NCBI GenBank assembly: GCA_012839815.1
Contig: DUMQ01000070.1
Coordinates: forward strand, 1 to 56,968
DNA: 56,968 nt
Direction of reading: 5' to 3'
Origin: Bacillota bacterium
Lineage (GTDB): Bacteria > Bacillota > SHA-98 > Ch115 > JABLXJ01
The position numbers and the translations under genes are program-made. Below, one piece after another: positions 37,302-56,393 of this stretch. The first letter of the stretch is position 1; the number at the start of each line of letters is the position of its first letter. Below the pieces are notes generated by a model. That model was not told where the DNA came from, made no database searches, and saw only the letters and a program-made list of their open reading frames with translations.

Positions 37302-38354
37302 ATGACGATTAGGGACGTCGCAAGGCGCGCAGGTGTTTCTGTGGCTACGGTATCTGCGGTGCTCAACCAGAACAAATATGTAAGCGAGCAGTTGAAGGAG
37401 CGGGTCCAAAGGGCTGTGGAGGAGCTCGGTTATCAGCCGAATCGCCTGGCGCGTAGCTTGCGCAGGAAAAAGAGCTCAATGGTTGCATACATAGTGCCAA
37501 CCATCACCAACCCTATCTTCTCGCAGGTTGCGCGAGGCGTCCAGGACGTGATGTCCCAGGCGAGCCACAGCGTAATCCTATGCAATAGCGACCTCGACCC
37601 GAAGAAATTCGAAGATTACCGCAGCATCTTGCTGGAAAGCCAGATCGATGGCCTTATCCTGAGCGCAGCGCATGATCCTGCAACCGGGCGCGTGGTCGAG
37701 GCTTTTAATTCGAAGGGGGTTCCGGTGGTTATCGTTCATTCCCCGCGAGATCTGGAGGATGTCGACTCCATCCTGCCGGACGATCATGGCGGGGCCGTCA
37801 AAGCTGTTGAACATCTGGTTGCGCTAGGGCACAGGCGAATCGGGATTGTCGGGGTGAAGAACAGCACCAGCTCGAGGCTCAGGGTTGAAGGCTACAAGGA
37901 GGCTCTTGAGAAAGCCGGTATCCCTTTGGACGATAGATTGATCTACCTGGGGGAGTCGTATGCTGATGAATATGGGTACAAAGGCTGCCAGGCCCTGCTC
38001 CAGGTTGACCCGCCCCCGACTGCGATATTTGCCGTAAGCGACCTGCTAGGGATAAAAGTATTATCTGCTGCCGCTGATATGGGGCTGCGGGTCCCGGAGG
38101 ACATCTCTATCGTGGCGTTTGATAATACCTTCGCGGCCTATTCAAGGCCGCAGCTGACATCGGTCTCTGTGCCCAACTATGAAATGGGCCAGGTGGCTGC
38201 GCGTCTGCTCCTTGGCCGCCTGCGGCGGTCTGAATCAGAATTGAAGCGGGCGGGTAAGGCGGGTAGTCCTTCCAGAGGGGATAGGGCCGTACGGAAGCTG
38301 TTTGACGAGGAACTGGTGGTGAGGGCCTCGACGGGGCCCTGCAGGGCGAGTTAG
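37302..38354 (+). CDS. LacI-family transcriptional repressor
   Basis: The 350-aa product has the LacI HTH (MTIRDVARRAGVSVATVSAV with LNQNKYVSEQLKERVQRAVE), the hinge helix region (RLARSLRRKKSS), and the periplasmic-binding-like core: IVPTITNPIFSQVARGVQDV, DGLILSAAH, LGHRRIGIVG, AVSDLLGIKVLSAAADMGLR and ISIVAFDNTFAAYSRPQLTS. An insertion rich in charged residues lies near the C-terminus. It probably controls the downstream galactosidase and transporter genes in response to a galactoside or derived sugar. It is transcribed in the same direction as its targets. Confidence 0.92.
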   Translation: MTIRDVARRAGVSVATVSAVLNQNKYVSEQLKERVQRAVEELGYQPNRLARSLRRKKSSMVAYIVPTITNPIFSQVARGVQDVMSQASHSVILCNSDLDPKKFEDYRSILLESQIDGLILSAAHDPATGRVVEAFNSKGVPVVIVHSPRDLEDVDSILPDDHGGAVKAVEHLVALGHRRIGIVGVKNSTSSRLRVEGYKEALEKAGIPLDDRLIYLGESYADEYGYKGCQALLQVDPPPTAIFAVSDLLGIKVLSAAADMGLRVPEDISIVAFDNTFAAYSRPQLTSVSVPNYEMGQVAARLLLGRLRRSESELKRAGKAGSPSRGDRAVRKLFDEELVVRASTGPCRAS

Positions 38355-38423
38355 GTGCGGACCATCCACCTAACTCCGAGAGAATCTAGTAGAGGGTGAG
38401 TCTCAAGCAATTAATGTTAGATG

Positions 38424-38437
38424 AACGATTAGCTAAC
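38424..38437. promoter_or_regulatory. Candidate LacI-family operator upstream of the GH42 gene
   Basis: Second exact copy of AACGATTAGCTAAC, here continuing CGATCC. It lies 46 bases before the ATG at 38483, where a repressor would block transcription. Its presence supports the ATG at 38483 over the in-frame upstream start at 38396, which would place the operator in coding sequence. Confidence 0.6.
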
Positions 38438-38482
38438 CGATCCAGGAATAGCCGATATAACTTGCTGGGGGGCTCGAACGGT

Positions 38483-40567: not shown

Positions 40568-40659
40568 GATCGTGAGGGGATTAGAGAATAGCTGATGGTG
40601 CCTCCTATCGTGTTATGAAGGAAGAGGTACCATGGTGATATAGATAGGAGGAATCTACG

Positions 40660-42909
40660 ATGCGAACCGTTCTAAACTTTAACACAGAGTGGTTGTTTAT
40701 ACCTTCGGATATTCCGGGTACGGAAGGGCCTCTGGTGGATGAGTCGCAGTTTCTAAATGTTAACCTGCCGCATACCAACAAGATCTTCCCGCACCACTAT
40801 TTTGATGAAAACGAGTACAGGTTCGTATCTTGGTATAGAAGGCATTTCGCCCTGCCTGAAGAATATCGCGGCAAGCGCATCTGGGTTGACTTCGAAGGTG
40901 TCATGACCGTAGCACAGGTATATATTAATGGGGTTTTCGTTGCAGAACATAAAGGAGGGTTTACACCGTTTTCTGTTGATATCACGGATTACGTGAATTA
41001 CGGTGGAGCGTCAAACTTAATTGCCGTGAGAGTAGATTCCTCGGCCAGGCCGGACATACCGCCCGAAGGATACGTCGTCGATTATATGCAGTTCGGCGGG
41101 ATATATCGAAATGTTCGTCTCAGGATAGTTGATCCCCTGCATATAGACTGGGTTTTTGTCACATCGTCCAATGTATCCCGGGAAGCTGCCTGTTTAAGGC
41201 TTTTAGCCCACGTCGTCAACGCCGGCGCATCGCCCGCGGACTTCAATTTGAAGATCGAGATTCTGGATGCGGATGGGGAATCCGTAGCCAGCACCAACAA
41301 GAATGCCTTCATAGAGCCTGGACGGGAGATGGAGCTCGAACAATTGATAGATCCGATTGAAAGGCCCCGACTGTGGGATATTGATAATCCATACCTCTAT
41401 GTTGCTCAGTTTACAGTAATATCTCAGGGCCGGGTGGTAGACCAGTACTCGGTTCGTTTCGGAATAAGGACCGCGGTATTTGCTGAGGACGGTAAGTTTT
41501 ACCTGAACGGGGAACCTCTCAAGCTACGAGGGCTGAACAGACATCAGACCTATCCATACCTTGGGGCGGCCATGCCCGATCGCGGCCAGAGGAAAGATGC
41601 TGATATACTCCGCTATGAGCTCGGCCTCAATATTGTTCGAACCTCACATTACCCTCAGGCGCCTGCTTTTCTTGACCGCTGCGATGAGATCGGACTCCTT
41701 GTGTTTGAAGAGATCCCTGGATGGCAGCATATAGGCAATGATGCCTGGAAGTCGATTGTCAAAGAAAACCTGCGCTCCATGATCATCCGGGATAGGAATC
41801 ACCCATCGATAGTATTATGGGGGGTCCGGATCAATGAGTCAGAGGACGATCATGATCTCTATCTTGAAACGAATCGCATTGCTCACGAACTCGATCCTTC
41901 AAGGCAGACAGGAGGGGTCAGGAACTTTCGGGAGAGCGAGTTTTTGGAAGACGTTTATACGTTCAATGATTTCAGCGGCGGCATATTGGAGCCAAACCAT
42001 CCGAGGTATCTGGTTACCGAGTTTGGCGGCCACACTTTTCCGACGAAATCTTATGATAACGAAGATCGCCTAATTGAACACGCGAAGTTGCACGCATCCA
42101 TCCAGAACGCTCAATACGCGCGACCTGACGTGGCAGGGGCTATTGGGTGGTGTGCCTTTGATTACAATACTACTATCGATTTCGGGTCAGGAGACGGGAT
42201 ATGCTATCATGGCGTATGTGATATTTTTAGATTGCCCAAGTTCGCCGCCTACTTCTACAGGAGTCAGATGGATCCTAAAGATGCCCCCATGGTGTTTGCC
42301 GTCACGCATTATACGCCGGGCGACCGGTCGGGTGGAGGAATTGACCCGCTACTGGTCTTCAGTAACTGCGAAGAGGTGGAGGTTGTGATAGATGGGGAGT
42401 CCCAGGGAATCAAGCTCCCGAACCGAGAGGCGTATCCTAGCCTCCCTCATCCACCTTTCGAGTTTAGGGGTATATCATTCCCCCGGGGCAGAGGCCGAAG
42501 TGAGATAAGAGTGATCGGGAGGATCGGTGGGGTCGAGGTCACGTCCCAGACCATCCGCCTGGCTGGCCCCCCAGCCCGCTTGGCTCTAAGGGTGGACGAT
42601 GAGTCGCTTATAGCTGACGGAACCGATTGTACTCGTCTTGTCTTTGAGGTGCAGGATGTAAACGGGCAGAGGTTGCCTTATGCCTCCCTGCCGGTTAGCT
42701 TTGAACTCGATGGCCCGGGCGAGCTCATTGGGGAAAATCCTTTTTGCACGGAGGCCGGGCGTGGGGCTGTCTATGTAAGGACAACCCGGGAGCCAGGTGA
42801 GATTCGAGTGAGGGCGAAATGTGGGGTGCTTCCCCCAGTGTCGGTCACAATACGCTCGATGCCCATGGTCGAGCCTATAGTGCCCGAGACCCTCGCGGGA
42901 AATGCTTAA
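40660..42909 (+). CDS. GH2-family glycoside hydrolase (beta-galactosidase or beta-glucuronidase-like)
   Basis: The 749-aa product has an N-terminal sugar-binding domain (about 1-160), an immunoglobulin-like domain (about 160-270), the barrel with LNRHQTYPYLGAAMPDRGQR, HPSIVLWGVRINESEDD (acid/base Glu at about 393) and YLVTEFGGH (nucleophile Glu at about 454). C-terminal beta domains (VTSQTIRLAGPPARLALRVD and GELIGENPFCTEAG) resemble the DUF4982/invasin-like end of many bacterial GH2 enzymes. The start follows ATAGGAGG. No signal peptide. Exact sugar cannot be read; the GH42 neighbour favours galactosides. Confidence 0.88.
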   Translation: MRTVLNFNTEWLFIPSDIPGTEGPLVDESQFLNVNLPHTNKIFPHHYFDENEYRFVSWYRRHFALPEEYRGKRIWVDFEGVMTVAQVYINGVFVAEHKGGFTPFSVDITDYVNYGGASNLIAVRVDSSARPDIPPEGYVVDYMQFGGIYRNVRLRIVDPLHIDWVFVTSSNVSREAACLRLLAHVVNAGASPADFNLKIEILDADGESVASTNKNAFIEPGREMELEQLIDPIERPRLWDIDNPYLYVAQFTVISQGRVVDQYSVRFGIRTAVFAEDGKFYLNGEPLKLRGLNRHQTYPYLGAAMPDRGQRKDADILRYELGLNIVRTSHYPQAPAFLDRCDEIGLLVFEEIPGWQHIGNDAWKSIVKENLRSMIIRDRNHPSIVLWGVRINESEDDHDLYLETNRIAHELDPSRQTGGVRNFRESEFLEDVYTFNDFSGGILEPNHPRYLVTEFGGHTFPTKSYDNEDRLIEHAKLHASIQNAQYARPDVAGAIGWCAFDYNTTIDFGSGDGICYHGVCDIFRLPKFAAYFYRSQMDPKDAPMVFAVTHYTPGDRSGGGIDPLLVFSNCEEVEVVIDGESQGIKLPNREAYPSLPHPPFEFRGISFPRGRGRSEIRVIGRIGGVEVTSQTIRLAGPPARLALRVDDESLIADGTDCTRLVFEVQDVNGQRLPYASLPVSFELDGPGELIGENPFCTEAGRGAVYVRTTREPGEIRVRAKCGVLPPVSVTIRSMPMVEPIVPETLAGNA

Positions 42910-43151
42910 ATATATATTAGACCCTTATGTCGCCTGCGACGACACCATCACTATTCTGAGGGTGGCTGATGTGGTATTCCCAAATGTGGTCGACTTATTC
43001 TGGATTCTGGGGATGAGATGGGGGTGAGACGTGGATAGAGAATCTTTTCAGCGGGTCCCAACAAAAAATAATCTGCTGAGGGAGAGGAAAAGGGTCTTAC
43101 GGTACAATGGTAGTAATTTAAGACTAGGGAAAAAACAAGGAGGGTATCAAG

Positions 43152-44414
43152 ATGAGAAACCGGGTGTTGTCGGCTTTAATTATAGTTTTCGTTTTAGTCT
43201 CAGGAATAGCTGAAGTGGAAGCGGCAAAGAACATCAAGTTAACTCTCTGGGGTTGGAACATCGGGATTGATGCTTTGAAGGCCGTAGCTTCTAAATTCAA
43301 AGAGACTCATCCAAACGTAGATTTTGACTTCGTAGAAATGAATGTTCAGGATGTCCATGATAAACTCAAGGCATCGCTGATGGCCGGAGTTGGAGCGCCT
43401 GACATATGCACAGTGGAGCAGTATTATGTGCAGCAGATAGCATCAAAAGGGGGATTGGTGGACCTAACTAAAGAACTACAAGGGTTAGAAAATAAATTCG
43501 CTAGACATGCTTGGGTGGCATCAAAGTTCCGTGGTTCCCTCTATGCGATTCCTTGGGATATTGGCCCGTGTGCGCTGTATTACCGAAAGGATATCTTCGA
43601 TTCCCTTGGAGTTAAACCCCCTAGGACATGGGCTGACTTTGTAACAGTAGGGAAGAAGGTCGCTGCCGACCTGAATGGGGATGGCACGCTCGATCGCTAT
43701 ATGCTCAACATTCCATTAAATGACCCCTATGGGTACTTCATGTTCATTTGGTCGAAGAAGCTCAAAATATTTGATGAAAATGGAAATCTGGTCGTCGATA
43801 ATCCTGAGGCTTTCGAGGTTATGAAATGGTATACCGACCTCTATCTCGTTCATCATGTGGCACTTCCACAGAATTACTGGGAGCCCGCATGGTTTAACGC
43901 TATCAAGGAAGGACGCTTGGCAACGATCCCTATGGCGGTTTGGTTTGCTGGTCAACTCAAGACGCAGGCCCCGGAGCTCTCCGGCAAGTGGCGCGTATCT
44001 GATTGGCCATCCGCGACTGGCGAGAAGACCGGAACTAACTGGGGTGGATCTACCCTGGTCATTCCTGTTCAATCAAAACATAAGAAAGAGGCCATAGAGT
44101 TCGCCAAGTTTATGCTGGCCACTACAGAGGGACAAATACTCTCCTACAAGGCCAGCAACATCTTCCCAGCCTATCTCCCTGCTCTAAATTCCCCTGTATT
44201 CAAAGAACCAGATCCGTATTTCGGAGGTCAGGTTATTGGGAAGATATTTGTAGATAGCGTCCCTTATATTTCTGAATGGTACTATCCTGTTCACATGCAA
44301 GCGGCGGAACAAGCGTTTAATACTCTGCTAGCTAAGGTTCTCAACAGGAAAGCAACACTTAAGGAGGCCTGGGATGAGGCAATCCGGGCCATAAAGAAGG
44401 AAATGGCTCGCTGA
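43152..44414 (+). CDS. Sugar ABC transporter substrate-binding protein (CUT1)
   Basis: The 420-aa product follows AAGGAGG. It has a signal peptide (MRNRVLSALIIVFVLVSGIA, cleavage near EVEA-AKN), then the extracellular solute-binding family 1 fold: KLTLWGWNIGIDALKAVASK, KASLMAGVGAPDICTVEQYY, ALYYRKDIFDSLGVKPPRTW and TNWGGSTLVIPVQSKHKKEA. There is no Cys after the signal region, so it is not a lipoprotein: it should be soluble in a periplasm, or released. Binds a sugar, probably a galactoside oligosaccharide, for the permeases downstream. Confidence 0.9.
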   Translation: MRNRVLSALIIVFVLVSGIAEVEAAKNIKLTLWGWNIGIDALKAVASKFKETHPNVDFDFVEMNVQDVHDKLKASLMAGVGAPDICTVEQYYVQQIASKGGLVDLTKELQGLENKFARHAWVASKFRGSLYAIPWDIGPCALYYRKDIFDSLGVKPPRTWADFVTVGKKVAADLNGDGTLDRYMLNIPLNDPYGYFMFIWSKKLKIFDENGNLVVDNPEAFEVMKWYTDLYLVHHVALPQNYWEPAWFNAIKEGRLATIPMAVWFAGQLKTQAPELSGKWRVSDWPSATGEKTGTNWGGSTLVIPVQSKHKKEAIEFAKFMLATTEGQILSYKASNIFPAYLPALNSPVFKEPDPYFGGQVIGKIFVDSVPYISEWYYPVHMQAAEQAFNTLLAKVLNRKATLKEAWDEAIRAIKKEMAR

Positions 44415-44427
44415 GATAATGCTAATG

Positions 44428-44518
44428 TAACGAGGATATGCGGTAAATATCATGCCGCCCCCAAGTGGCGCAGGGCAGGCGTGTTCCTGCCCTCGCCACC
44501 CCAATACGTTCCTCGTTA
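44428..44518 (+). promoter_or_regulatory. Intercistronic RNA structure between binding protein and permease
   Basis: A long inner stem (GTGGCG + AGGGCAGG with CCTGCCCT + CGCCAC, 44465-44479 with 44486-44499) is flanked by an outer stem TAACGAGGA/TCCTCGTTA (44428-44436 with 44510-44518). A weak T-run follows. Such hairpins protect the upstream mRNA or reduce read-through so that the binding protein exceeds the permeases. Confidence 0.7.
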
Positions 44519-44558
44519 TTAATCCTTTTTAGCAACGGTTGGCCAAGGGGGTGTTCAA

Positions 44559-45464
44559 ATGGTCAAAGATCCGGGGAAAAACAAGCGACTCTTGTGGCGC
44601 GAAGTTCGAAGGAACAAGGTAGCCTATCTCTTTATCTCCCCCTTCTATATTATGTTTTTACTCTTTATGGTGTTACCGGTAGTTTATTCATTTTATCTTA
44701 GCCTCACGGACGTACAGGGCATAGGAATGGTGAAGTGGGTCGGCTTAAGAAACTATATTAATCTTTTCCAGGATGAGAGGTTTTTGCAAGCTATCAAAAA
44801 TACATCATTGTTTGCGGTGGTTCAGATACCTATAATGCTAACCTTAGCTGTGATTCTCGCGCTTATCTTAAATTCCAAGAGGGTCTTCCTTAGAAATCTT
44901 TTTCGATCAGTCTACTTTCTCCCCGTAGTAATGTCCCTCGCGGTAGCAGCATTGGCCTTTTCAATGATATTAAACAAAGATATCGGACTCTTAAATTTAG
45001 TATTGTCGCGGATGGGATTCTCACCTCGGGACTGGTTAAACGATCCTGATCTTGCCTTATGGTCTATTGTGGGACTCGTGACGTGGAGATGGACTGGATA
45101 CAATATGGTGATTATTCTTGCCGGATTACAAAATATTCCACAAGAATTGCTTGAAGCAGCCCAAATAGATGGAGCGGGTCCCTGGCAGCGTCTTCGCCAC
45201 ATAACCCTTCCACTGATTTGGCCCGTGGTATTCTTCTGTCTCATATTGTCTATGATAGGTGCATATCAGCTTTTTGAAGAACCGATGATCTTAACAAAGG
45301 GCGGCCCAATGGATCGTACCTTGACAATTGTACTCTATCTTTACCAGACAGGATTCCAGAAGTTTCAGTTTGGGTATGCATCTGCGATAGCATATAGTCT
45401 CGTTATAATCCTGCTGGTAGTCTCGGGTCTCCAGATGAAGCTTTCCGGAGGGTTAAAGGATTAG
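44559..45464 (+). CDS. Sugar ABC transporter permease (MalF/UgpA-type)
   Basis: The 301-aa product has six predicted membrane helices, starting YLFISPFYIMFLLFMVLPVV, and the EAA motif ELLEAAQIDGAGPWQRLRHI then TLPLIWPVVFFC in the cytoplasmic loop that docks the ATPase. Start ATG 44559 follows AAGGGGGTG. It pairs with the next gene. No ATPase gene is in the window, so a shared MsmK-type ATPase elsewhere is likely. Confidence 0.92.
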   Translation: MVKDPGKNKRLLWREVRRNKVAYLFISPFYIMFLLFMVLPVVYSFYLSLTDVQGIGMVKWVGLRNYINLFQDERFLQAIKNTSLFAVVQIPIMLTLAVILALILNSKRVFLRNLFRSVYFLPVVMSLAVAALAFSMILNKDIGLLNLVLSRMGFSPRDWLNDPDLALWSIVGLVTWRWTGYNMVIILAGLQNIPQELLEAAQIDGAGPWQRLRHITLPLIWPVVFFCLILSMIGAYQLFEEPMILTKGGPMDRTLTIVLYLYQTGFQKFQFGYASAIAYSLVIILLVVSGLQMKLSGGLKD

Positions 45465-45492
45465 TGAACTATGCGAAGGAGAGGGATGTTTT

Positions 45493-46350
45493 GTGCGCCC
45501 TAGATCTTCTCATATACGTGAGCTTAGCCTCCCTATGAGCGTTGCTGCGCAGATAGCCACATATGCATTTCTCATTTTCTTTCTAATACTAGCGGCGGCT
45601 CCGTTCTACTGGACTTTAGTTTCGTCATTCCGAAGCATGGGGGAGATCTTTAGTCGACCTACTTTTTTACCTTCCCGGTTCACGCTTGAGAACTACGTCT
45701 CCTTGAGTGGGAAGACCTTATTTTGGCGCTGGACCTTCAATAGTTTTTTCGTCGCAATAGGTTACACATTACTGGGCCTATTCTTTTGTTCCCTTGGGGG
45801 GTTCGGTTTTGCCAAATACACCTTCCCCTTCAGGGACATATTATTTTGGATCTTGCTCGGCTCGATGATGATACCATACCATGTTACCATTGTCCCTCTA
45901 TTTAGCGTATTTTCAAAGTTGGGACTGGTCAACACTTACTGGTCTCTAATCGTTCCTGGGTCGGCAAACGCTTTCGGGATCTTCTTTATGCGACAATACA
46001 TCTCAGGAATCCCCACTGATCTAATGGACGCGGCCAGAATCGATGGCTGTTCTGATTTCGTCATATACCATAGGATAATTCTTCCTATTATCAAGCCAGG
46101 TATAGGAGCTCTGGCTATTTTCCTGTTTTTAGGCTCGTGGAACAATTTCCTATCCCCCTTGATTTTCATGAGAACATCTGAAATGTTCACCCTCCCTGTG
46201 GGACTCGCAGCCCTTTTTGGGCAATGGAAGGTCGAATACGGCCAGATAATGGCTGGAAGTGTATTCACGGTCTTACCAGTGGTAGTTGTCTTCCTCAGCC
46301 TCCAGCGTCAGTTTATTGAAGGCTTGACCGTTGGGTCGCTAAAGGGGTAA
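45493..46350 (+). CDS. Sugar ABC transporter permease (MalG/UgpE-type)
   Basis: The 285-aa product has an N-terminal helix (IATYAFLIFFLILAAAPFYW), LVSSFRSMGEIFSRPTFLPS, and the EAA loop DLMDAARIDGCSDFVIYHRI then ILPIIKPG. The GTG start at 45493 follows AAGGAGAGGG. It forms the heterodimeric channel with the upstream permease. It ends with the usual QRQFIEGLTVGSLKG. Confidence 0.92.
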   Translation: MRPRSSHIRELSLPMSVAAQIATYAFLIFFLILAAAPFYWTLVSSFRSMGEIFSRPTFLPSRFTLENYVSLSGKTLFWRWTFNSFFVAIGYTLLGLFFCSLGGFGFAKYTFPFRDILFWILLGSMMIPYHVTIVPLFSVFSKLGLVNTYWSLIVPGSANAFGIFFMRQYISGIPTDLMDAARIDGCSDFVIYHRIILPIIKPGIGALAIFLFLGSWNNFLSPLIFMRTSEMFTLPVGLAALFGQWKVEYGQIMAGSVFTVLPVVVVFLSLQRQFIEGLTVGSLKG

Positions 46351-46435
46351 ATCGATTAAGGAAAGTGACGCCGACGAAAGTTATGGACGGTGTCCTGGGT
46401 CTATAAAATTATGTGTTAAGGAAGGCGTATTCGCG

Positions 46436-47374
46436 GTGCAGTATAAGAAAGACTGGGATAGAGCCCTGGAAAGACATAAGGCATGGTGGGGGAGGAAAAT
46501 AATAGATAGAGTCTGCATTTCGGTCACTGCACCTCGGGAAGAGCCATCTTTTCCAGAACCACCGGCTACCCTCACAAAAAATGGACTGATATTGAGTATG
46601 TTCTTACATGTGCAGAGGAAAGAATCAAATGCACATACTTTGGCGGAGACGCCCTGCCGCTATTCTGGCCCAACCTGGGACCTGATGTATTCTCCGCGTT
46701 TTTCGGTTGTCCCCTCACGTTTGCCGAGAATACCTCATGGGTGTCGCCGATCATCCGGGACTGGGATGAAGATATGCCAAAAGTGAGGTTTGACGAGGAA
46801 AACCGTTGGTGGAAGCTGGTTAAGGCTCTCACTGCCGCCGCTGTGGAATGGGGAAGGGGTAAGTTCTTTGTAGAGCTTATTGATTGCATACAGGCGGCGA
46901 TGCTATCTCCGCCATGAGGGGTCCTCAGAATCTATGCGTGGATCTAGTAGAGCGCCCCGACAAGATTAGGGAGCTTATGGGGTACATAAAGCCCGCGACC
47001 TATCATGTGTATGGGGAACTTTACAGCATCATACAGACAAGAATGCAAGGATCCAGTTTGACGGGCCGGGCGCTATAAGGCATCTGGATCTCCTTCTTGA
47101 TATATCGGAGCTGAATGCTATTCAGTGGGTGCCTGGTGCCGGGGCGCCACCTATCTCCCATTGGATACCGCTTTTGAAAAGGGTTCAAAAGGCCAATAAG
47201 GGTGTGCATATATCGGTGGCTCCGGAGGAAGTCGAGATCATTCTCGAGGAGTTAGCTCCTGAGAGACTTTTCATACAGACGCACGCCAATACAGTTGAAG
47301 AGGCGGATCGAATAGTGGATCTGGCGGCGAAAATGAGCTGCAAGAAGACACTCATAACCTCATGTATAAATTAA
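46436..47374 (+). pseudogene. Uroporphyrinogen decarboxylase-family protein, pseudogene 1
   Basis: Fragments in different frames together match the family: YKKDWDRALERHKAWWGRKI at the start, then KWTDIEYVLTCAEERIKCTY with FGGDALPLFWPNLGPDVFSA in another frame, then AISAMRGPQNLCVDLVERPD, then FDGPGAIRHLDLLLDISELN and NAIQWVPGAGAPPISHWIPL through KKTLITSCIN. Lesions: a frameshift at the A6 run (46576-46581), another near 46884-46890, and a deletion plus frameshift near 47040-47062 that removes the middle of the protein. Relatives of this family transfer methyl groups or decarboxylate corrin-type substrates and often accompany sugar genes. This copy should be non-functional. Confidence 0.85.
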
Positions 47375-47400
47375 CACTATCTAGGGGGCTAAACGCGAAC

Positions 47401-47751
47401 GTGGAATTCGATAGGATTTTCAAGTGAATCGCCGTCTGGTGGGAAGGAGAGATGCTCGATAGAGCATGCATCGCCTTCTCCTTGCCCAGGACGGGTGATA
47501 TGGATACGGGAGGCATTAGAGACCCCAACGACCTGTGAGCGTCTCCCGAGGTAGAGCCGGACTTCGAAAATATCGTGGATGCGCTCATAGCGGGCGCTGA
47601 TTCCAGGATATATTATGGAGAAGCACTCCCCATTATCCCGCATACCTACGGCAATCGAGGCACACCAATGACTACGGCCCATTATCTCGGTGGTGAAGTA
47701 AGATTTACACCGGCGAGGGTTTGGGTAGACCCAGGAACTCTCTCGGATTAA
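47401..47751 (+). pseudogene. Uroporphyrinogen decarboxylase-family protein, pseudogene 2 (N-terminal fragment)
   Basis: A single frame from GTG 47401 reads VEFDRIFK, TGA (47425), IAVWWEGEMLDRACIAFSLP, TGA (47536), then ASPEVEPDFENIVDALIAGA and YGEALPIIPHTYGNRGTPMT to a TAA at 47749. It resembles the start of pseudogene 1 (KAWWGRKIIDRVCISVTAPR). Only the N-terminal third is left. Two stops and truncation mark it as dead; the pair are decayed paralogues. Confidence 0.8.
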
Positions 47752-47915
47752 TTGGTAGATAACTGGTAAACAGGATTTTCTGCCATCCTAAGGAAAGATC
47801 TCAATATTGTTTTGGTCTAGACTCCCTTAGACTTCCTTGTACATTGATAATCGACATGGGACTTCGGAATTTCCGAGAGTCTAATAAAAAAATAAATGGA
47901 AAGGAGGAGCAAAGC

Positions 47916-50153
47916 ATGTTTTTCGAAGGTGAAAACATAGCAAAACTGGATAGTTTAATAAATGCTCTTAAACAAAAAGAAAAAACTGCCTTCAGCATAA
48001 ATACATACCATCAGCGTGCTAAGATATTTAAAGAGGCATTCGATGAGGAAGAAAATAAAAAAATACCTAGAATTATAACGGTTTCCCATGCTCTTTCGTC
48101 TTTTTTAAAGAATAAAGACATAGTCCTATTTGAAGAAGAGCTATTTGCTGGGCATACACAACCCTGTGACTTTACATTTTCCCTTCCAAGAACAGTGGAG
48201 GAAGAAATAGAGTGTCTTGAAAGTAAGACACACCTTACCTGTGAACAGGTCAACATCCTTGAAACCTTCAAAACTGGTTTTGAAATAGGTATGTTTTCTA
48301 GAGGCGCTTCCGGGCATATAATTTCAGGCTATGAGAATGTCCTTAAGATTGGATTGGATGGTATATTAAAGAAAGCAATCGACGGCCTTAAAAGGTCTGA
48401 TGATAGTAAAAAAGAATTTTATATTGCGTTATTAGAAGTATGTATGGCGGCTTCAGAATATATATTACGTTACGCTTCCAAGGCTCTTGAGATGTCAAAA
48501 ACTGTTGAGGATAAATATCGTTCAAAACATTTAAGGAGGATAGCGGAGGCTTGCGAATGGGTATCCCATAATCCACCACGTACTTTCTTTGAAGCCTTGC
48601 AACTTTTATGGCTAACACACGAAATTATTACGTTAGAGCAGCCTTCAGGAGCACTTTCATTGGGGAGAATAGATAAATATCTATATCCATATTATAAGAA
48701 AGACTTAGAAAGCGGAGTTATAACAAAAGAAGAGGCAGAGAGGCTAATACAAGCATTTTGGATAAAACTAGGCGCGCTCCGAAACGGATTTCAAAATGTG
48801 ACATTAGGTGGCCTTTTACCAGATGGAACATATCTTGCGAATGATATTACTTATATGTGCCTCAATGCCAGCCTTGTGATAAAATTTGATCAGCCTCTTG
48901 TTTCTCTACGATGGGCTCCTCAAATCCCTAAAGACCTTTGGAATAAAGCTTTCGAAGTACTTTTATCAGGCCTAGGGTTTCCCGCGATATTTAACGATGA
49001 CGTCTGTATAGCCGCAAAAGTAAAAAGGGGTGTAGCTTATGAAGATGCAGTGAATTATGGAATTGTTGGTTGTGTGGAGATGACTGTGCCTGAAAAAGAA
49101 TTTTCAAATACCGAAGCCGTTCGTATAAATTGGGCTAAGGTTTTAGAGTTGATGTTAAACGGTGGGCGATGCACTATAACAGGTAAAACAATCCCTCTAA
49201 AGAATGTTAATGCCCTTGGTAATGTTAGGTCATTTGATGAATTCTATGAATGGTTTAAATCAGAACTAGAATATTTTACTGAAATCGCGGCAAAGAGTAT
49301 AGTCCTCCTAGATAGAAATTTCTGGCAAGAATGGCCACGTCCTTTTCTCTCTTCTACAATACCTGGTTGTCTTGATAAAGGTTGTGATATAGGCTGTGGA
49401 GGTACAGAAATAAGGTTTTTACCTATAAACACTTGCGGTATAGCAAGTACAATAGATTCACTTGTAGTTATAAAGAAAGCTGTATTCGAAGAGAATAGAC
49501 TTTCATTACAGGAGCTTGCCGATATTTTACGGAAGGATTATGAAAATATGGAGGTAATGCGCCAGGAATTTGCAAATAGATATCCAAAGTATGGTAATGA
49601 TAATGAAGAAGTTGATTCATTAATGAGGGATATAGTGAACTTTTTCTGTAGTAAAGTGTTATCTTTTAAAACTGACTACGGCTGGGGTTTTCAACCTGGA
49701 TTTTATACGGTATATTGGCATGCAACGTTAGGTAAGGCAACAGGAGCCCTACCAGACGGGAGACATAAAGGTGTTGCGCTCTCAAATGGGTTTTCACCTT
49801 CACAGGGTCGGGACATTTCAGGGCCAACTGCGGTAATAAGGTCGTGTACAAAAGTAGATCACACCCTTTTTGGAAATGGAATGGTATTAGATCTTAAGTT
49901 TAGCCCTTCTTTTTTCAAAGACGATACGCATAGGACAGCGTTTAAATATCTTATAGAGACATATTTTGAAATGGGTGGCGCAGAGGTACAATTTAATATT
50001 GTAAGTAGAGAAACACTAAGGAAAGCCCAGTTAAAGCCTGATGAATACCGTGACCTCATAGTACGAGTATCCGGCTTTAGTGCGTATTTTGTTGATCTCG
50101 ATAAAGTATTGCAGGATGAAATAATTGCAAGGACGGAGTATTCGGATATATAA
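47916..50153 (+). CDS. Glycyl radical enzyme (PFL2/dehydratase-like), orphan
   Basis: The 745-aa product has the catalytic Cys motif IVGCVEM (Cys about 386, Glu about 388) and the C-terminal glycyl radical motif RVSGFSAYF (Gly about 720) followed by QDEIIART. GCVE rather than the double Cys of true PFL points to the dehydratase/C-N or C-C lyase group. Substrate is unknown. AAAGGAGG precedes ATG 47916. The gene is far more A+T-rich than its neighbours and uses different codons, implying transfer. It needs a radical SAM activase; none is nearby, and an IS110 element begins about 20 bases downstream. Strictly anaerobic lifestyle is implied. Confidence 0.88.
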   Translation: MFFEGENIAKLDSLINALKQKEKTAFSINTYHQRAKIFKEAFDEEENKKIPRIITVSHALSSFLKNKDIVLFEEELFAGHTQPCDFTFSLPRTVEEEIECLESKTHLTCEQVNILETFKTGFEIGMFSRGASGHIISGYENVLKIGLDGILKKAIDGLKRSDDSKKEFYIALLEVCMAASEYILRYASKALEMSKTVEDKYRSKHLRRIAEACEWVSHNPPRTFFEALQLLWLTHEIITLEQPSGALSLGRIDKYLYPYYKKDLESGVITKEEAERLIQAFWIKLGALRNGFQNVTLGGLLPDGTYLANDITYMCLNASLVIKFDQPLVSLRWAPQIPKDLWNKAFEVLLSGLGFPAIFNDDVCIAAKVKRGVAYEDAVNYGIVGCVEMTVPEKEFSNTEAVRINWAKVLELMLNGGRCTITGKTIPLKNVNALGNVRSFDEFYEWFKSELEYFTEIAAKSIVLLDRNFWQEWPRPFLSSTIPGCLDKGCDIGCGGTEIRFLPINTCGIASTIDSLVVIKKAVFEENRLSLQELADILRKDYENMEVMRQEFANRYPKYGNDNEEVDSLMRDIVNFFCSKVLSFKTDYGWGFQPGFYTVYWHATLGKATGALPDGRHKGVALSNGFSPSQGRDISGPTAVIRSCTKVDHTLFGNGMVLDLKFSPSFFKDDTHRTAFKYLIETYFEMGGAEVQFNIVSRETLRKAQLKPDEYRDLIVRVSGFSAYFVDLDKVLQDEIIARTEYSDI

Positions 50154-50227
50154 CTTTAACTTGTTGGCATGATAAAACCGCAACCATATCGAATATAACA
50201 CCCAAGGGGTTGAGGACAGATAAAAGG

Positions 50228-50362
50228 CGGTGCAGGCAAGGGTGGCCGTGCAAAACTATGGGCTACTCTAAGCCCGAGAACTTGTTTGGCTGCCCCCTCG
50301 ACCCGCTAAAGTGGGTTACACAGCCCGGATAGGTAAGTGTCGGAATAGCTTTGCCTGCACCG
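50228..50362 (+). ncRNA. Candidate IS110 bridge RNA (seekRNA)
   Basis: A 12-bp closing stem CGGTGCAGGCAA/TTGCCTGCACCG (50228-50239 with 50351-50362) encloses two further hairpins: GGGCT/AGCCC (50260-50264 with 50271-50275) and ACCCGC/GTGGGT (50301-50306 with 50311-50316, one G-U pair). This is where IS110 elements encode the RNA that guides donor and target recognition. The structure is read from the sequence; function is inferred from the family. Confidence 0.65.
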
Positions 50363-50385
50363 TAAAATCCCTGGAGGTGTTGGGG

Positions 50386-51525
50386 ATGCGGTTTTTCGGG
50401 ATCGATGTCCACCGCAAGTATTGCGAAGGCGCGGAGCTTTTGCCAAACAACACAATTAGGCACTTCCGATTTCCTAATGAGCGTAAGGCCCGGGAGAAGT
50501 TTGCTCGAGGGCTTGATGACCAGTGTAAGGTAGCCCTGGAGGCTACGGGTAACGCCCTAATGATCTATGATATCCTCTCCGCCCATGGAGCAAAGGTTGT
50601 GTTGGTTAACCCCATGAAGACCAGGGCCATTGCTGAAGCCAGGATAAAAACGGACAAGATCGATGCAGAAATCCTTGTAAGGCTTCTTGCCGCAGATTTT
50701 GTCTGTGAGTGTTGGGTAGCTCCGAAGGAAGAACGAGATTTGAGGACATTACTTCACCACCGTGTTGCTCTAAAGAAACAAGTTGTTAGCATAAAGAACC
50801 GGGTTCACGCCATATTAATGCGGCATAGCATACCTGTTCCTGTAAGTGACCTGTTCGGCGTCAAGGGGCGCAGATTCCTTTTCTCCCTTGAGGGGCTTCC
50901 GGAGGTGGAGAAGATAGTCATGGCTTCAAACCTCAAGGCCTTGGAGGGTTTGGAGGCCGAGGTCAAGGCTATAGAAAAGGAGCTATACCTTAGGGCGAAA
51001 GCGTTACCCGGGGTTGAGCTTCTCTTGGGCATCCCTGGTATAGACGTCTTAGCAGCCCTGACCATCCTGGCTGAAGTAGGAGACATTAGACGGTTTGCCT
51101 CAGCAAAGAAGCTGGCTAGCTTTGCCGGAGTAGTCCCCTCAGTTCACCAATCTGGCAAGGTACGTTATACTGGCCATATAACCAAGGGAGGGCGCAGCAT
51201 GTTGAGATGGATAATGATTCAAGTGGCCCTGCAGGTAGTGAGGCATCCTGGATCTCTTAGGGATTTCTATCTACGGCTTCGGGGGCGGAAGGGGCATAAG
51301 ATTGCGATTGTGGCAACAGCCAGGAAGTTACTCACTATCATCTGGGTAATGTTAACCAGAAACGTAAGCTATGAATATTCCAGGGATGATCTCAAGGAAA
51401 AGAAGATAAAGAGGATGGAGAAGAGAGCAATGCCATATACGGTTGGAAGCGATATGCCCCAAAAGATTACGTCCTATTTGGCTACTGAGGATGATATACT
51501 CAAAATACCCGAATCGGCGGCTTAA
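50386..51525 (+). CDS. IS110-family transposase (DEDD recombinase)
   Basis: The 379-aa product has the RuvC-like N-terminus: FFGIDVHRKY (Asp about 7), VALEATGNALM (Glu about 52) and ARIKTDKIDAEILVRLL (Asp about 90 and 93). The C-terminal Tnp domain has LLLGIPGIDVLAALTILAEV, IRRFASAKKLASFAGVVPSV and GGRSMLRWIMIQVA with the serine region HQSGK. It uses a bridge RNA for target choice. The start at 50386 follows GGAGGTG. The gene looks intact. IS110 enzymes leave no standard target duplication. Confidence 0.92.
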   Translation: MRFFGIDVHRKYCEGAELLPNNTIRHFRFPNERKAREKFARGLDDQCKVALEATGNALMIYDILSAHGAKVVLVNPMKTRAIAEARIKTDKIDAEILVRLLAADFVCECWVAPKEERDLRTLLHHRVALKKQVVSIKNRVHAILMRHSIPVPVSDLFGVKGRRFLFSLEGLPEVEKIVMASNLKALEGLEAEVKAIEKELYLRAKALPGVELLLGIPGIDVLAALTILAEVGDIRRFASAKKLASFAGVVPSVHQSGKVRYTGHITKGGRSMLRWIMIQVALQVVRHPGSLRDFYLRLRGRKGHKIAIVATARKLLTIIWVMLTRNVSYEYSRDDLKEKKIKRMEKRAMPYTVGSDMPQKITSYLATEDDILKIPESAA

Positions 51526-51563
51526 AACGCCCCACATCGAGGTTGCGGTTTTTCATAGGTGAG

Positions 51564-52201
51564 TTTTGCAGAATCTAATCCAGGAAACTGGAAATTGGCA
51601 TAAGGAATAAAAAGGAAGCAGACAAGGCTGCACTTCTGTGGTATAAAGGAATTAACACATCTACCTTTACCTGACAGGAGTGACAACACATGTCTGCACC
51701 ACTTATTACAAAAAGACCGGCGCTTAGTCAAGTTCCTTTATACCATGGGTTTACAGATTCTTTTATCCAGGCCTCAATTCACGCACTTTCTACAAATCGT
51801 AGCGGGTATAATCGGTGGTGGTTACCGCCTTACCATAGCCAATATCCATAGGACTACCGCTGCTAAAAGAGCTCTTTGTAGTATGACACGGTTTCTTTCC
51901 AAGTCTCCATGGGATGAGGCCATGACCATTACCAGGTTCGGTCACTAAAAGCGATCCAAAGGTTCTGGTGTGCGGTGTATATGGACTACACTTATCTTGA
52001 ACTATACAGGGCCGAGAATAAGGGCAAGTTTCGAAACCTTGGAGAAGCGATAGACGCTTATCGTCAAGGTAACGCTCACAGGCTTATCAAATTCGCCTAC
52101 GAAGCAGCCCTTAATGGCCAGTCTTTATTAGGCGTATACCAGAACCTCGGATTGGCTGCGTAAAATGAGATTCCCAGTTTCCTGGATGTGTTTCTGCAAA
52201 A
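51564..52201 (+). mobile_element. Internally deleted IS remnant with long inverted repeats (MITE-like)
   Basis: The ends match as imperfect inverted repeats of 28 bases: TTTTGCAGAA-nnnn-ATCCAGGAAACTGG at 51564-51591 and its inverse at 52174-52201. The 638-bp interior keeps only the two ends of a DDE transposase gene. Ends are intact, so it could still be moved by a related transposase acting in trans. Confidence 0.8.
51745..52163 (+). pseudogene. Transposase remnant, N- and C-terminal parts only
   Basis: The left part reads LLSRPQFTHFLQIVAGIIGG and RALCSMTRFLSKSPWDEAMT, a typical DDE transposase N-terminus (IS701/IS4-like). After a frame break near 51940, the right part reads VYMDYTYLELYRAENKGKFR and LGEAIDAYRQGNAHRLIKFA, ending LLGVYQNLGLAA. 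The catalytic centre is missing. Confidence 0.75.
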
Positions 52202-52370
52202 TTCAAGTTAGTAACTCAGGACATTAGTAGCTCACACACAGAACTCAGACACAGAATAAATGCTACCAGGTTATGGTTCACCAGGTTTGTTATGATCAAT
52301 CGTCCGGGCGGCTATAGCATGATTAACCTGTAGATTAATGATTGGCCTATAACATGAGAAGGGGAAAGCC

Positions 52371-53900
52371 ATGCGTAGGAGACTACTATTGGGGATAGAT
52401 ATTGGGACCTCCGGCTGTAAGCTGGCTGCATTTGACTTTGAGGGTCAGGTTGCCGGCACAGTTACAATGAAATACAAGACATATTATCCTCACTTTGGCT
52501 ATGTGGAGCAGGATGCGGGGGAATGGTGGCGAGCTACCTGCGATGGTATCCAAGCGATGATACGGGACTATGGAATTGACCCTGGTGAGATTGCCGCAGT
52601 TGGGGTGGCGGGCCAGAGCTGGTCCTGCCTCCCCGTGGATGAGGCGGGGGTTCCCCTCCGCAATACCATGATCTGGCTGGACAGGAGGGCGGTCGAGCAG
52701 GCCAGGTGGATGAAGGAGAAGCTTGGCGAGGATAGGCTTATCGCCCTGAACGGCAACCCGGTGGACCCTGCCTATATCGTTCCCAAGATGCTGTGGCTTA
52801 AGGAAAATGAGCCCGAGGTATATAACAGGGCTCATAAATTCCTACAGAGCAATGCCTTTATAGTTTTCAAACTCACAGGGATATACTCGCAAGACTACTC
52901 GCAGGGATACGGGTTTCATTTCTTCAATATCTCAAAAGGCGCCTGGGATGAAGGAGTAGCTGGTGAATTGGGCCTCTCCCCGGAGAAGGTTGCACCGATT
53001 TATAATTGCCATGAGGTGGTAGGGGAGGTCACCCGCCAGGCTGCAGGAGAAACGGGCCTATGCGAGGGAACGCCGGTGGTGGCAGGGGGGCTTGACGCGG
53101 CTTGTTGCACTTTAGGCGCAGGGGTTATCAGGCCTGGCCAGACTCAAGAGCAGGGAGGCCAGGCTGGCGGCATGAGCATCCAGGTCGACCAGCCCCTAAT
53201 CCACCCCAAACTCATCCTGAGCTATCATGTGCTCCCGGACCAGTGGCTTCTCCAGGGGGGCACAGTGGGGGGCGCGGGAACGCTCAAGTGGTTCGACGAA
53301 CGTCTTGGGGCCGGTGCCCGGCAGGTGGCCAAGGAGCGGGGGATCAGCTCATTTGAGGTCATGAGCGAGGAGGCGGGCCAAATCAAGCCCGGGAGCGACG
53401 GACTCATCTTCCTCCCCTACATGGCAGGGGAACGGTCCCCAATATGGAACAGCAAAGCCCGCGGGGTCTTCTTCGGGCTTTCCTACGACAAAACAGAGGC
53501 TCACATCATCCGCTCCATCATGGAAGGAGTCGGCTATTCACTCCTCCATAACCTTGATACCGCGGAGGAGGTAAAAGCCTATGCCAGGGAGCTCGTCAGC
53601 GTGGGCGGTGCATCCAATAGCCGGGTATGGACCCAGATCAAGGCCGATATCACCGGGAGGCCTATCCACGTGCCCTCTTCTGATCATGCCACCACCCTCG
53701 GGGCTGCCATGTTAGCCGGGATGGGTGTGGGGGTTTACAAGGATTTCGAGGAAGCTGTGAATCGAACAGTGCATATCCAGCGGACCCACATCCCCGATGA
53801 GTCGAATCACCGCATCTACCGGAGGTATTATGAACTATACATTGAACTATACAATAGGCTAAAAGATTGTTTCGATGTTCTTCATGAACTAAGCGTGTAA
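52371..53900 (+). CDS. FGGY-family carbohydrate kinase (xylulokinase-like)
   Basis: The 509-aa product has the FGGY N-terminus LLLGIDIGTSGCKLAAFDFE, VGVAGQSWSCLPVDEAGVPL, MIWLDRRA, and GGLDAACCTLGAGVIRPGQT with the catalytic Asp. C-terminal signatures are FLPYMAGERSPIWNSKARGV and SVGGASNSRVWTQIKADITG. FGGY kinases phosphorylate sugars or polyols with ATP. The substrate-loop motif is AGQSW rather than the SGQMHG typical of classical xylulokinase, so specificity is open. GAGAAGGGGAAAG precedes the start. The next gene, GatD-like, is about 30 bases away, suggesting a polyol or ketose route. Confidence 0.85.
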   Translation: MRRRLLLGIDIGTSGCKLAAFDFEGQVAGTVTMKYKTYYPHFGYVEQDAGEWWRATCDGIQAMIRDYGIDPGEIAAVGVAGQSWSCLPVDEAGVPLRNTMIWLDRRAVEQARWMKEKLGEDRLIALNGNPVDPAYIVPKMLWLKENEPEVYNRAHKFLQSNAFIVFKLTGIYSQDYSQGYGFHFFNISKGAWDEGVAGELGLSPEKVAPIYNCHEVVGEVTRQAAGETGLCEGTPVVAGGLDAACCTLGAGVIRPGQTQEQGGQAGGMSIQVDQPLIHPKLILSYHVLPDQWLLQGGTVGGAGTLKWFDERLGAGARQVAKERGISSFEVMSEEAGQIKPGSDGLIFLPYMAGERSPIWNSKARGVFFGLSYDKTEAHIIRSIMEGVGYSLLHNLDTAEEVKAYARELVSVGGASNSRVWTQIKADITGRPIHVPSSDHATTLGAAMLAGMGVGVYKDFEEAVNRTVHIQRTHIPDESNHRIYRRYYELYIELYNRLKDCFDVLHELSV

Positions 53901-53930
53901 GCCGAACGCTGAGGGAGACTGTGATTAACA

Positions 53931-54968
53931 ATGAAAGCTGCAGTATTGTACGGTCAAAGCGATATTCGCTATGAAGAGATAGAGATGCCTAAAATCAATG
54001 ACGATGAGATCCTGGTGAACGTAAAAGCCACCGGGGTTTGTGGATCCGACATACCGCGCGTATTGGGGGATGTGGCTCACTATTACCCGATTGTGCTGGG
54101 CCATGAATTCTCGGGAGAGGTTGTGGAGGTAGGGAAACGGGTAAGAGGTATATCAATGGGTGATCGTGTCACCGGCGCCCCTCTCATTCCCTGTCACAGG
54201 TGCGTAGACTGCGTCCAGGGAAACTACGCCCAGTGCAAGAACTATACGTTCATAGGTTCTAGGGTTTTTGGGAGCTGGGCTGAGTATGTAAAGCTCCCTG
54301 GCATCAATGGCGTTAAGCTCCCCGAGGGAGTATCCTATGAACAGGGCGCGTTCTTCGAGCCTGCCACTGTAGCGTTTCACGGGTTATTCTGCATGGACTT
54401 CCGGGGAGGCTCAGATGTGGCGATCATCGGCATGGGAACGATCGGGTTGCTCGTTCTCCAGTGTGCGAGAATCCTGGGGGCCAAACGGATTTTCGCCTTT
54501 GATATCGATAATGACAAGTTGGAAGTGGCGAGGGAATATGGGGCGGACATATGCTTAAACACGCGAGACGAGGGGTTTCAGGAGATCATCAGACAAGAGA
54601 CGAACGGCCGGGGTTTTGAGCTTGTGGTGGAGGCGGCGGGGGTAGAATCCACGGAGAAGCTCAGTCTCGAGATCGCCTCCAACAAGGGGAAGATAATGTT
54701 CATCGGGACGCCTTCAAGAGACGTCTCTCTCACCCGCAGGGAATTTGAGAACATAAACAGAAAAGAACTTACTATTCGTGGCTCCTGGATGTCATACTCG
54801 GCTCCCTTCCCGGGTAAAGAATGGGAATTGACGAGTTATTATTTTCAGAAGGGACGACTCGATTGCGATAGATTGGTAGATAGAGTCATCCCCCTTGGGC
54901 AGATCTCCAAAGCCTTCGAGGATTTGATGTCGGGGAAAGTAAAAGGGAAGATTCTGCTGAAACCATGA
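53931..54968 (+). CDS. gatD: Zinc-dependent polyol dehydrogenase, galactitol-1-phosphate 5-dehydrogenase-like
   Basis: The 345-aa product is a medium-chain zinc dehydrogenase. Catalytic zinc residues are in ATGVCGSDIPRV (Cys about 37) and LGHEFSGEV (His about 58, Glu about 59); structural zinc Cys lie in PCHRCVDCVQGNYAQC (about 88, 91, 94, 102). The cofactor fold has VAIIGMGTIGLLVLQ. Particular likeness to GatD: AHYYPIVLGHEFSG, NYTFIGSR and RKELTIRGSWMSYSAPFPGK. It would oxidise a polyol phosphate or polyol with NAD+. It forms a likely operon with the FGGY kinase. The exact substrate is inferred. Confidence 0.75.
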   Translation: MKAAVLYGQSDIRYEEIEMPKINDDEILVNVKATGVCGSDIPRVLGDVAHYYPIVLGHEFSGEVVEVGKRVRGISMGDRVTGAPLIPCHRCVDCVQGNYAQCKNYTFIGSRVFGSWAEYVKLPGINGVKLPEGVSYEQGAFFEPATVAFHGLFCMDFRGGSDVAIIGMGTIGLLVLQCARILGAKRIFAFDIDNDKLEVAREYGADICLNTRDEGFQEIIRQETNGRGFELVVEAAGVESTEKLSLEIASNKGKIMFIGTPSRDVSLTRREFENINRKELTIRGSWMSYSAPFPGKEWELTSYYFQKGRLDCDRLVDRVIPLGQISKAFEDLMSGKVKGKILLKP

Positions 54969-55261: not shown

Positions 55262-55534
55262 ATGAAAACATACTCGCCAACCTTTAAAGCGCAGGTCGTC
55301 CTTGAACTGCTCAAGGAAGAAAAAAGCATAGCCCAGATATCGTCTGAGTATGGGGTTCATCCGTCCCAGCTTCATAAATGGAAGAAGCAGGCAGTCGAGA
55401 ATCTACCCCAGCTAGAGGATGATAAAAAGGCTATTGACAAAGTCAGGAACGAATACGAAGCAAAGCTGGATGAACTCTACGCCGAGATTGGCCGCCTCAC
55501 TACGCAGATCGCGTGGTTCAAAAAAAGTTTCTGA
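55262..55534 (+). CDS. IS3 transposase OrfA (HTH)
   Basis: The 90-aa product MKTYSPTFKAQVVLELLKEE with IAQISSEYGVHPSQLHKWKK is a classic IS3 OrfA helix-turn-helix, followed by a leucine-zipper-like helix (VRNEYEAKLDELYAEIGRLT). It overlaps orfB in the -1 frame; an A6 run (55519-55524: AAAAAAG) just before its stop is the usual place for the programmed shift giving OrfAB. Confidence 0.85.
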   Translation: MKTYSPTFKAQVVLELLKEEKSIAQISSEYGVHPSQLHKWKKQAVENLPQLEDDKKAIDKVRNEYEAKLDELYAEIGRLTTQIAWFKKSF

Positions 55535-56393
55535 GTTACCTCGCTCAGAGCGGCTTGCATTGCTAGATATGAGCGAGGACCGGGAGCTGCCTATTAGAAC
55601 ACAAGCAGAGCTTTTAGGTCTAAACCGTTCTAGCCTTTACTATAAGCCGGTTAAGCCCTCGGCTGAGGAGATTGCCCTCAAGCACCGGATAGATGAGATT
55701 TATACTGACCATCCCTACTATGGCTCGCGGCGGATAACGGCTCAATTACGTAGAGAAGGATTTACAGTTAACCGTAAGGCGGTCCAACGGCATATGCGTG
55801 AGATGGGGATTCAGGGCATCTGCCTGGCCCCAATCTCAGTAAACGAAACAGCGAACATTGGGTTTACCCCTATCTATTGCGAGGTGTTACGATAGATCAT
55901 CCCAATCACGTGTGGGGCATTGATATCACTTACATTCGTCTGAAGCAAGGCAGGATGTACCTTGTTGCTATTATAGATTGGCATTCCCGTTACGTGTGGC
56001 CTGGGAGCTGGATCAGACTCTCGAAACCCCGTTTGTTTTAGGTGTGGTTCGCAAGGCTCTAATCCAGGCCTGGCCGGAGATTTTAAACAGTGACCAGGGA
56101 AGCCAGTTTACGAGTCCCCAGTATATAAACCTCTTACAGGAGGCCGGGATACAAATCAGCATGGATGGCAAGGGCATGCCATTGACAATATCTTCACTGA
56201 GCGCTTCTGGCGGACCATAAAGTATGAAGAAGTCTATCTGCATGAATATGGAAGTCCACGGGAAGCACGCCAGGGGATCGGCCAGTACATAGATTACTAT
56301 AACAACCGGAGGCCACACCAAGCTTTGGGTTATCGAACCCCAGCGGAAATGTATTTTGGCAGCCCTCAGGGGATGATAAACGGTCAAAAATGA
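55490..56393 (+). pseudogene. IS3 transposase OrfB with three single-base frameshifts
   Basis: Pieces in successive frames form an rve-type OrfB: VSELPRSERLALLDMSEDRE, IDEIYTDHPYYGSRRITAQL; then HWVYPYLLRGVTIDHPNHVW and GIDITYIRLKQGRMYLVAII (first Asp); then ELDQTLETPFVLGVVRKALI and NSDQGSQFTSPQYINLLQEA (second Asp); then NIFTERFWRTIKYEEVYLHE (Glu) and YYNNRRPHQALGYRTPAEMY. Breaks lie near 55822-55826, 55994-56000 and 56183-56185, each explained by one missing base next to a G or C pair. The start of the open orfB frame overlaps orfA. Confidence 0.82.

What the first reader, a model, noticed from the sequence alone, without database searches (positions are those of the whole stretch)
50228..50362. 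Candidate bridge RNA of an IS110-family element
A 12-bp closing stem and two inner hairpins sit between the left end and the recombinase. IS110 elements are guided by such RNAs, and the asymmetry of noncoding DNA (long left, short right) fits the IS110 group even though inverted ends are present, a trait more usual for the IS1111 group.
Basis: partly seen in the sequence, partly recalled or inferred. Interest (0 to 1): 0.6.

Follow-up and report, generated by a model that had tools for sequence, protein, structure and literature searches.

The report
Bridge RNA with mirrored guide order
This is a real guide RNA of a jumping gene of the IS110 family: its first loop spells out the exact DNA site where the element sits, but the guide strands are in the opposite order to the best-studied IS110 RNA, so the element mixes features that were thought to separate the two groups of the family.

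Summary
Window 50226-50362 encodes a two-lobed RNA between the left end and an intact IS110-family recombinase (50386-51525). It folds better than all 200 shuffles (z -5.4), and its stems covary across 14 relatives (23 compensatory cells against 6.9 in shuffles). The element is 50162-51559 (1398 bp), core TG. Loop 1 spells the target: 3' strand AACUUG equals left flank plus core; 5' strand UGCAAAACU is the reverse complement of the right flank. The composite 15-mer AACTTGAGTTTTGCA occurs exactly three times in the assembly (0.004 expected), each time at an unoccupied terminal repeat of the DDE insertion sequence that this element has interrupted. In nine relatives, guides match their own flanks far better than swapped flanks (1-2 of 362,880 permutations). 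The guide order is the reverse of IS621/ISEc21 and matches the published IS1111 order. The ends carry 12-bp subterminal repeats (IS1111-like), yet the RNA lies upstream of the recombinase (IS110-like) and the recombinase branches with ISMch4, not IS5075/IS5708. So: a bridge-RNA element of hybrid architecture. RNA expression and transposition are inferred, not shown. Two core-position bases of the window's RNA deviate, so it may be weakened.

The parts
50162..51559 (+). the IS element, 1398 bp, one core copy counted inside at the left
   Evidence: ends set by comparison with orthologues and with unoccupied target sites in the same genome
50162..50163 (.). left core dinucleotide TG
   Evidence: shared by left junction, right junction and unoccupied sites AACTTGAGTTTTGCA; the L010 insertion gives the same core
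50158..50161 (+). left half of the target (AACT)
   Evidence: matches bridge RNA 50279-50282; same bases in the unoccupied sites
50169..50185 (+). left subterminal inverted repeat ATGATAAAACCGCAACC (perfect 12-nt part 50174-50185)
50226..50362 (+). bridge RNA (predicted transcript body)
   Evidence: fold z -5.4; covariance model 129.7 bits (the window is one of the training sequences); compensatory changes
50228..50239 (+). closing stem, 5' arm (pairs with 50351-50362)
50249..50257 (+). [quoted passage not shown]
   Evidence: 9 of 9 to the reverse complement of 51562-51570; permutation test
50260..50275 (+). apical hairpin of the target lobe
50279..50284 (+). target guide, 3' strand of loop 1 (AACUUG), identical to left flank plus core
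   Evidence: 6 of 6 to 50158-50163; permutation test
50305..50309 (+). candidate donor guide, 5' strand of loop 2 (GCUAA), pairs with left-end TTGGC with one G-U
   Evidence: covaries in L012 and L014; read by eye, not tested statistically
50313..50326 (+). apical hairpin of the donor lobe
   Evidence: compensatory pairs in relatives
50329..50334 (+). donor guide, 3' strand of loop 2 (AUAGGU), identical to right end ATAGG plus T of the core
   Evidence: right end 51555-51560; L014 covaries as ACAGGTGA
50351..50362 (+). closing stem, 3' arm
50371..50377 (+). probable ribosome-binding site GGAGGTG, just after the RNA
   Evidence: sequence upstream of ATG 50386
50386..51525 (+). IS110-family DEDD recombinase, 379 aa; D7, E52, D90, D93 and S256 present
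   Evidence: PF01548, PF02371, NF033542; alignment with IS621 and ISCro4
51541..51556 (-). right subterminal inverted repeat GGTTGCGGTTTTTCAT
51557..51559 (+). right terminal extension AGG
51560..51561 (.). right core dinucleotide TG
51562..51570 (+). right half of the target (AGTTTTGCA)
   Evidence: reverse complement equals bridge RNA 50249-50257; same bases in the unoccupied sites

Best explanation
50226-50362 encodes the bridge RNA (seekRNA) of an RNA-guided IS110-family element at 50162-51559. The RNA is presumably transcribed with the recombinase and bound by it. Loop 1 pairs with the target: its 5' strand with the top strand right of the core, its 3' strand with the bottom strand left of the core. 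Loop 2 pairs with the abutted element ends in the same mirrored sense: 5' strand with the left end, 3' strand with the right end. The recombinase then exchanges strands at the TG core, so the element inserts in one orientation at AACT-TG-AGTTTTGCA, the tip of the terminal repeat of a DDE insertion sequence. Shown here: the conserved fold, the guide-flank matching, the core, the ends, the target and the mirrored order. Inferred: transcription, RNP formation, the circular intermediate and recombination.
For: Fold z -5.4. On 14 bridge RNAs, 90% of cells are paired, 11 pairs have changes on both sides, and the covariation score is 0.257 against 0.158 in shuffles (0 of 500) and at most 0.10 for slid partners. 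In nine distinct relatives the 3' guide matches its own left flank at 42 of 54 bases (1 of 362,880 permutations as good, the true pairing included) and the 5' guide its own right flank at 55 of 72 (2 of 362,880). The IS621 order shows no signal (41% and 53% of shuffles as good). Ten further copies, eight with guides not used before and two (L024, L020) sharing guides with that set: 40 of 60, 7 of 200,000 permutations. The predicted 15-mer is found exactly three times in the assembly, each at an unoccupied terminal repeat of the DDE insertion sequence, and once with one change at the repeat next to this element; reversed-pattern control 0; expected 0.004. The recombinase keeps all catalytic residues and matches IS621 and ISCro4. 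The model finds the RNA just upstream of the recombinase in the ISMch4 clade and not at IS5075, ISSso6, ISEc45 or IS5708.
Against: No RNA or transposition data. In the window RNA the core position of the 5' target guide reads UA where CA is expected, and the donor 3' guide reads AUAGGUA where relatives and the right end have ATAGGTG. The 5' donor guide is only five pairs with one G-U. Some relatives (L013, L086, L087, L032) match their flanks poorly, perhaps because they are decayed. Guide and flank windows were placed partly by eye; the permutations used the same windows throughout.
Confidence: 0.88

Rival explanations
1. An IS110 bridge RNA with the IS621 order: 5' strand of loop 1 reads the left flank, 3' strand the right flank.
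For: The RNA lies upstream of the recombinase as in IS621 and ISEc21.
Against: No match above chance in that order across nine relatives (40,569 and 53,055 of 100,000 shuffles as good), while the mirrored order gives 0-1 of 100,000.
Confidence: 0.02
2. A structured leader or attenuator that regulates the recombinase gene, not a guide RNA.
For: It lies directly before the ribosome-binding site and folds stably.
Against: The variable loop positions track the insertion site of each copy; a leader would have no reason to. The predicted target recurs at unoccupied sites.
Confidence: 0.03
3. A true bridge RNA, but the window copy is now inactive: it served the past insertion and has since lost core pairing. 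This does not exclude the best explanation; it concerns present activity.
For: Single copy; core-position deviations in two guide strands (alignment A2); exact target sites elsewhere remain unoccupied.
Against: Recombinase open and catalytic residues intact; both target guides still match perfectly outside the core.
Confidence: 0.3

Closest known systems
IS621 / ISCro4 (IS110 group; Durrant 2024, PMC11208160)
   Same: DEDD recombinase plus two-loop bridge RNA in the left end, core dinucleotide, long left and short right noncoding end
   Different: guide strands mirrored; 12-bp subterminal repeats instead of 2-3 bp; recombinase about 30% identical, 379 aa
IS1111-group elements with seekRNA (ISEc11, ISKpn4, ISPa11; Siddiquee 2024, PMC11187229)
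   Same: top-strand complement precedes bottom-strand match; subterminal repeats; 7-bp and 3-bp terminal extensions if a one-base bulge is allowed; insertion into terminal repeats of other elements, as the IS1111-group IS4321/IS5075 do (title in the reference list of PMC11208160)
   Different: RNA upstream instead of downstream of the recombinase; recombinase 379 aa and in another clade
ISMch4 clade of the IS110 family (L028; also actinobacterial relatives)
   Same: sister group in the tree; homologous RNA just upstream of the recombinase (35-51 bits)
   Different: about 38% identical; no long subterminal repeats seen by eye; core appears to be GT; mirrored order only weakly supported
ISMtsp17
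   Same: reported as an IS1111-type element with upstream noncoding region (PMC11187229)
   Different: guide order not stated in the text I could read; sequence not available here

Membership tests
IS110 family, broad sense | DEDD (RuvC-like) recombinase with C-terminal Tnp_20 domain and serine | tested here: met
IS110 family, broad sense | noncoding RNA with loops that read target and element ends | tested here: met
   computational only; target statistically, donor by eye
IS110 family, broad sense | insertion without target duplication beyond a shared core | tested here: met
   unoccupied sites in the same genome
IS110 family, broad sense | circular intermediate with a junction promoter | tested here: inconclusive
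   TTGCGG-17-CATGAT across the junction, 7 of 12; not above background in the element; the circle itself cannot be tested here
IS110 group (IS621/ISEc21 type) | RNA in the long left end | tested here: met
   224 bp left, 34 bp right
IS110 group (IS621/ISEc21 type) | subterminal repeats absent or short | tested here: not met
   12 of 12 bp
IS110 group (IS621/ISEc21 type) | bottom-strand guide before top-strand guide | tested here: not met
IS1111 group | subterminal repeats of 11-13 bp, extensions 7 and 3 bp | tested here: met
   extensions TGTTGGC and AGG only if a one-base bulge is allowed in the repeat
IS1111 group | top-strand guide before bottom-strand guide | tested here: met
IS1111 group | noncoding RNA downstream of the recombinase | tested here: not met
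   upstream in the window and in the relatives read
IS1111 group | recombinase of 330-350 aa in the IS1111 clade | tested here: not met
   379 aa; tree places it apart from IS5075 and IS5708
TIGR-Tas | Tas protein above the family cut-off | tested here: not met
   29.9 bits against cut-off 100; TIGR array not searched for

The most novel reading that the evidence does not exclude
A lineage of IS110 elements reads DNA with mirrored guides while keeping the RNA upstream of the recombinase. Guide order would then be independent of RNA location and of recombinase group, and a third arrangement would exist besides IS621 and IS1111. If the ISMch4 sister clade shares it, the published contrast of IS110 order with IS1111 order would hold only for part of the IS110 group.
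Probability: 0.55. Interest if true: 0.5.

Novelty: new variant of a known kind. Interest (0 to 1): 0.42.

Why it matters
The two groups of bridge-RNA elements have been separated by RNA position, end repeats and guide order. This lineage shows that these traits come apart. That bears on how the RNA moved between the ends during evolution and on how target sites should be predicted: with the wrong order, no target would be found. It also adds a natural system whose target and unoccupied sites lie in one genome.

Tried and rejected
Rfam search of the window: nothing. IS621 guide order: no signal. Junction promoter: a conserved TTGC...ATGA spacing, but scores not above background. Mirrored order in the ISMch4 clade: only weak support (5' strand 2% of permutations, 3' strand 16%). 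Viral contigs: no relatives. TIGR-Tas membership rejected on score. Two early searches failed because I gave the frame one base off; one automatic extraction of guides was mis-anchored for five copies and was replaced by hand-anchored windows.

Full report
Observation. The RNA folds 5.4 standard deviations better than shuffles.

The element. The gene at 50386-51525 is an IS110-family recombinase with the DEDD residues (D7, E52, D90, D93) and the serine (S256) in place, by alignment with IS621 and ISCro4. An ATG with a probable ribosome-binding site GGAGGTG begins just after the RNA, so the longer GTG ORF from 50311 is not needed. It is the only copy in the assembly; a second, distant IS110-type gene (24-29% identical) lies on contig 63.

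Ends and target. Relatives with recombinases about 71-76% identical (L006, L007, L022, L023, L013, L011) have the same ends, TGTTGGCATGATAAAACCGCAACC on the left (nearly so in L024) and GGTTGCGGTTTTTCATAGGTG on the right. The window element has interrupted the left terminal repeat of a decayed DDE insertion sequence that runs on to about 52209. The other repeat of that sequence, and repeats of further copies on contigs 149 and 11, show the unoccupied site AACTTGAGTTTTGCA or AACTTGAATTTTGCA. This fixes the core as TG and the element as 50162-51559. The same core follows from L010, which is inserted in the left end of another IS110-type element whose unoccupied form is seen in L014.

Guides. Loop 1 carries UGCAAAACU on its 5' strand and AACUUG on its 3' strand. 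Together they spell the 15-base target, on the top strand AACT-TG-AGTTTTGCA. In nine distinct relatives, with guides that differ from each other, each guide was compared with its own flank: 3' strand with left flank 42 of 54, 5' strand with right flank 55 of 72; permuting flanks among relatives reaches this in 1 and 2 of 362,880 permutations, the true pairing included. Tested the other way round, as in IS621, there is no signal. Ten further copies, most of them found by the RNA model, give 40 of 60 for the 3' strand (7 of 200,000 permutations). Loop 2 matches the element ends in the same sense: its 3' strand AUAGGU equals the right end, and its 5' strand GCUAA pairs with TTGGC of the left end. 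Changes in L012 and L014 follow their own ends, but this was read by eye.

Structure. On 14 RNAs a structure that I wrote down from the window fold and the alignment before counting has 90% of cells paired, 11 pairs with changes on both sides, 23 such cells (6.9 in shuffles), and a score well above that of slid partners. It was named from one of these sequences, so the percentage paired leans towards it; the compensatory counts are the stronger part. Stem 4 (base of the donor lobe) never shows a change on both sides and is the least supported.

Place in the family. Durrant (PMC11208160) and Siddiquee (PMC11187229) separate IS110 from IS1111 by RNA location and subterminal repeats, and Siddiquee also by guide order, tested in one IS110-type element, ISEc21. 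Here the RNA is upstream (IS110-like), the repeats are long and the order is top strand first (both IS1111-like). The recombinase tree puts the window with relatives whose RNA also lies upstream, next to ISMch4 and actinobacterial elements, and apart from IS5075/IS5708, from IS621/ISCro4 and from ISEc45/ISSso6. The covariance model finds the homologous RNA just upstream of the recombinase in the ISMch4 clade and in 17 of 398 sampled genomes of the phylum, and not at the other named elements.

Mechanism. Most likely the transcript from the left end folds, binds the recombinase, and bridges target and abutted ends, with strand exchange at TG. In the frame of the RNA the element is reversed relative to IS621: the RNA reads the right flank and the left end with its 5' strands. 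What is shown is sequence pairing and conservation; transcription, binding and recombination are inferred from the family.

Limits. The window RNA departs from the expected core pairing at two places, and other perfect target sites are unoccupied, so the copy may be weak or inactive. The ISMch4 clade test was underpowered. I could not read the figure of Durrant that shows loop pairings for six more elements, so earlier notice of a mirrored upstream RNA cannot be excluded.

Noticed in passing
window 50158-50161 and 51562-52209: Decayed DDE-type insertion sequence (weak DDE_5 match, below cut-off) with long terminal repeats, interrupted by the IS110 element; partial copies on contigs 149, 10, 11 and 102.
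   Followed up: partly
L010 (G069): A related element is inserted in the left end of another IS110-type element, so one bridge-RNA element targets the end of another.
   Followed up: partly
L008, L009, L018, L084: Related elements appear to sit in the 3' part of group II introns (target GGTGGTG-TG-AGAGGACG), with guides matching that sequence; intron identity recognised by eye, not tested.
   Followed up: partly
L018, after the right end: The right end of the element (about 42 bp) is repeated in tandem.
   Followed up: no
L022 recombinase: The last D of the DEDD set reads S (KTDKIS), so this copy may be inactive although its guides match its flanks very well.
   Followed up: no
window 37302-54968: The element sits in what looks like a sugar-use cluster: LacI regulator, GH42 and GH2 enzymes, ABC sugar transporter, glycyl radical enzyme (47844-50153), FGGY kinase, zinc alcohol dehydrogenase.
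   Followed up: partly
window 55419-55895: HTH_21 fragment, typical of IS3-type transposases.
   Followed up: no
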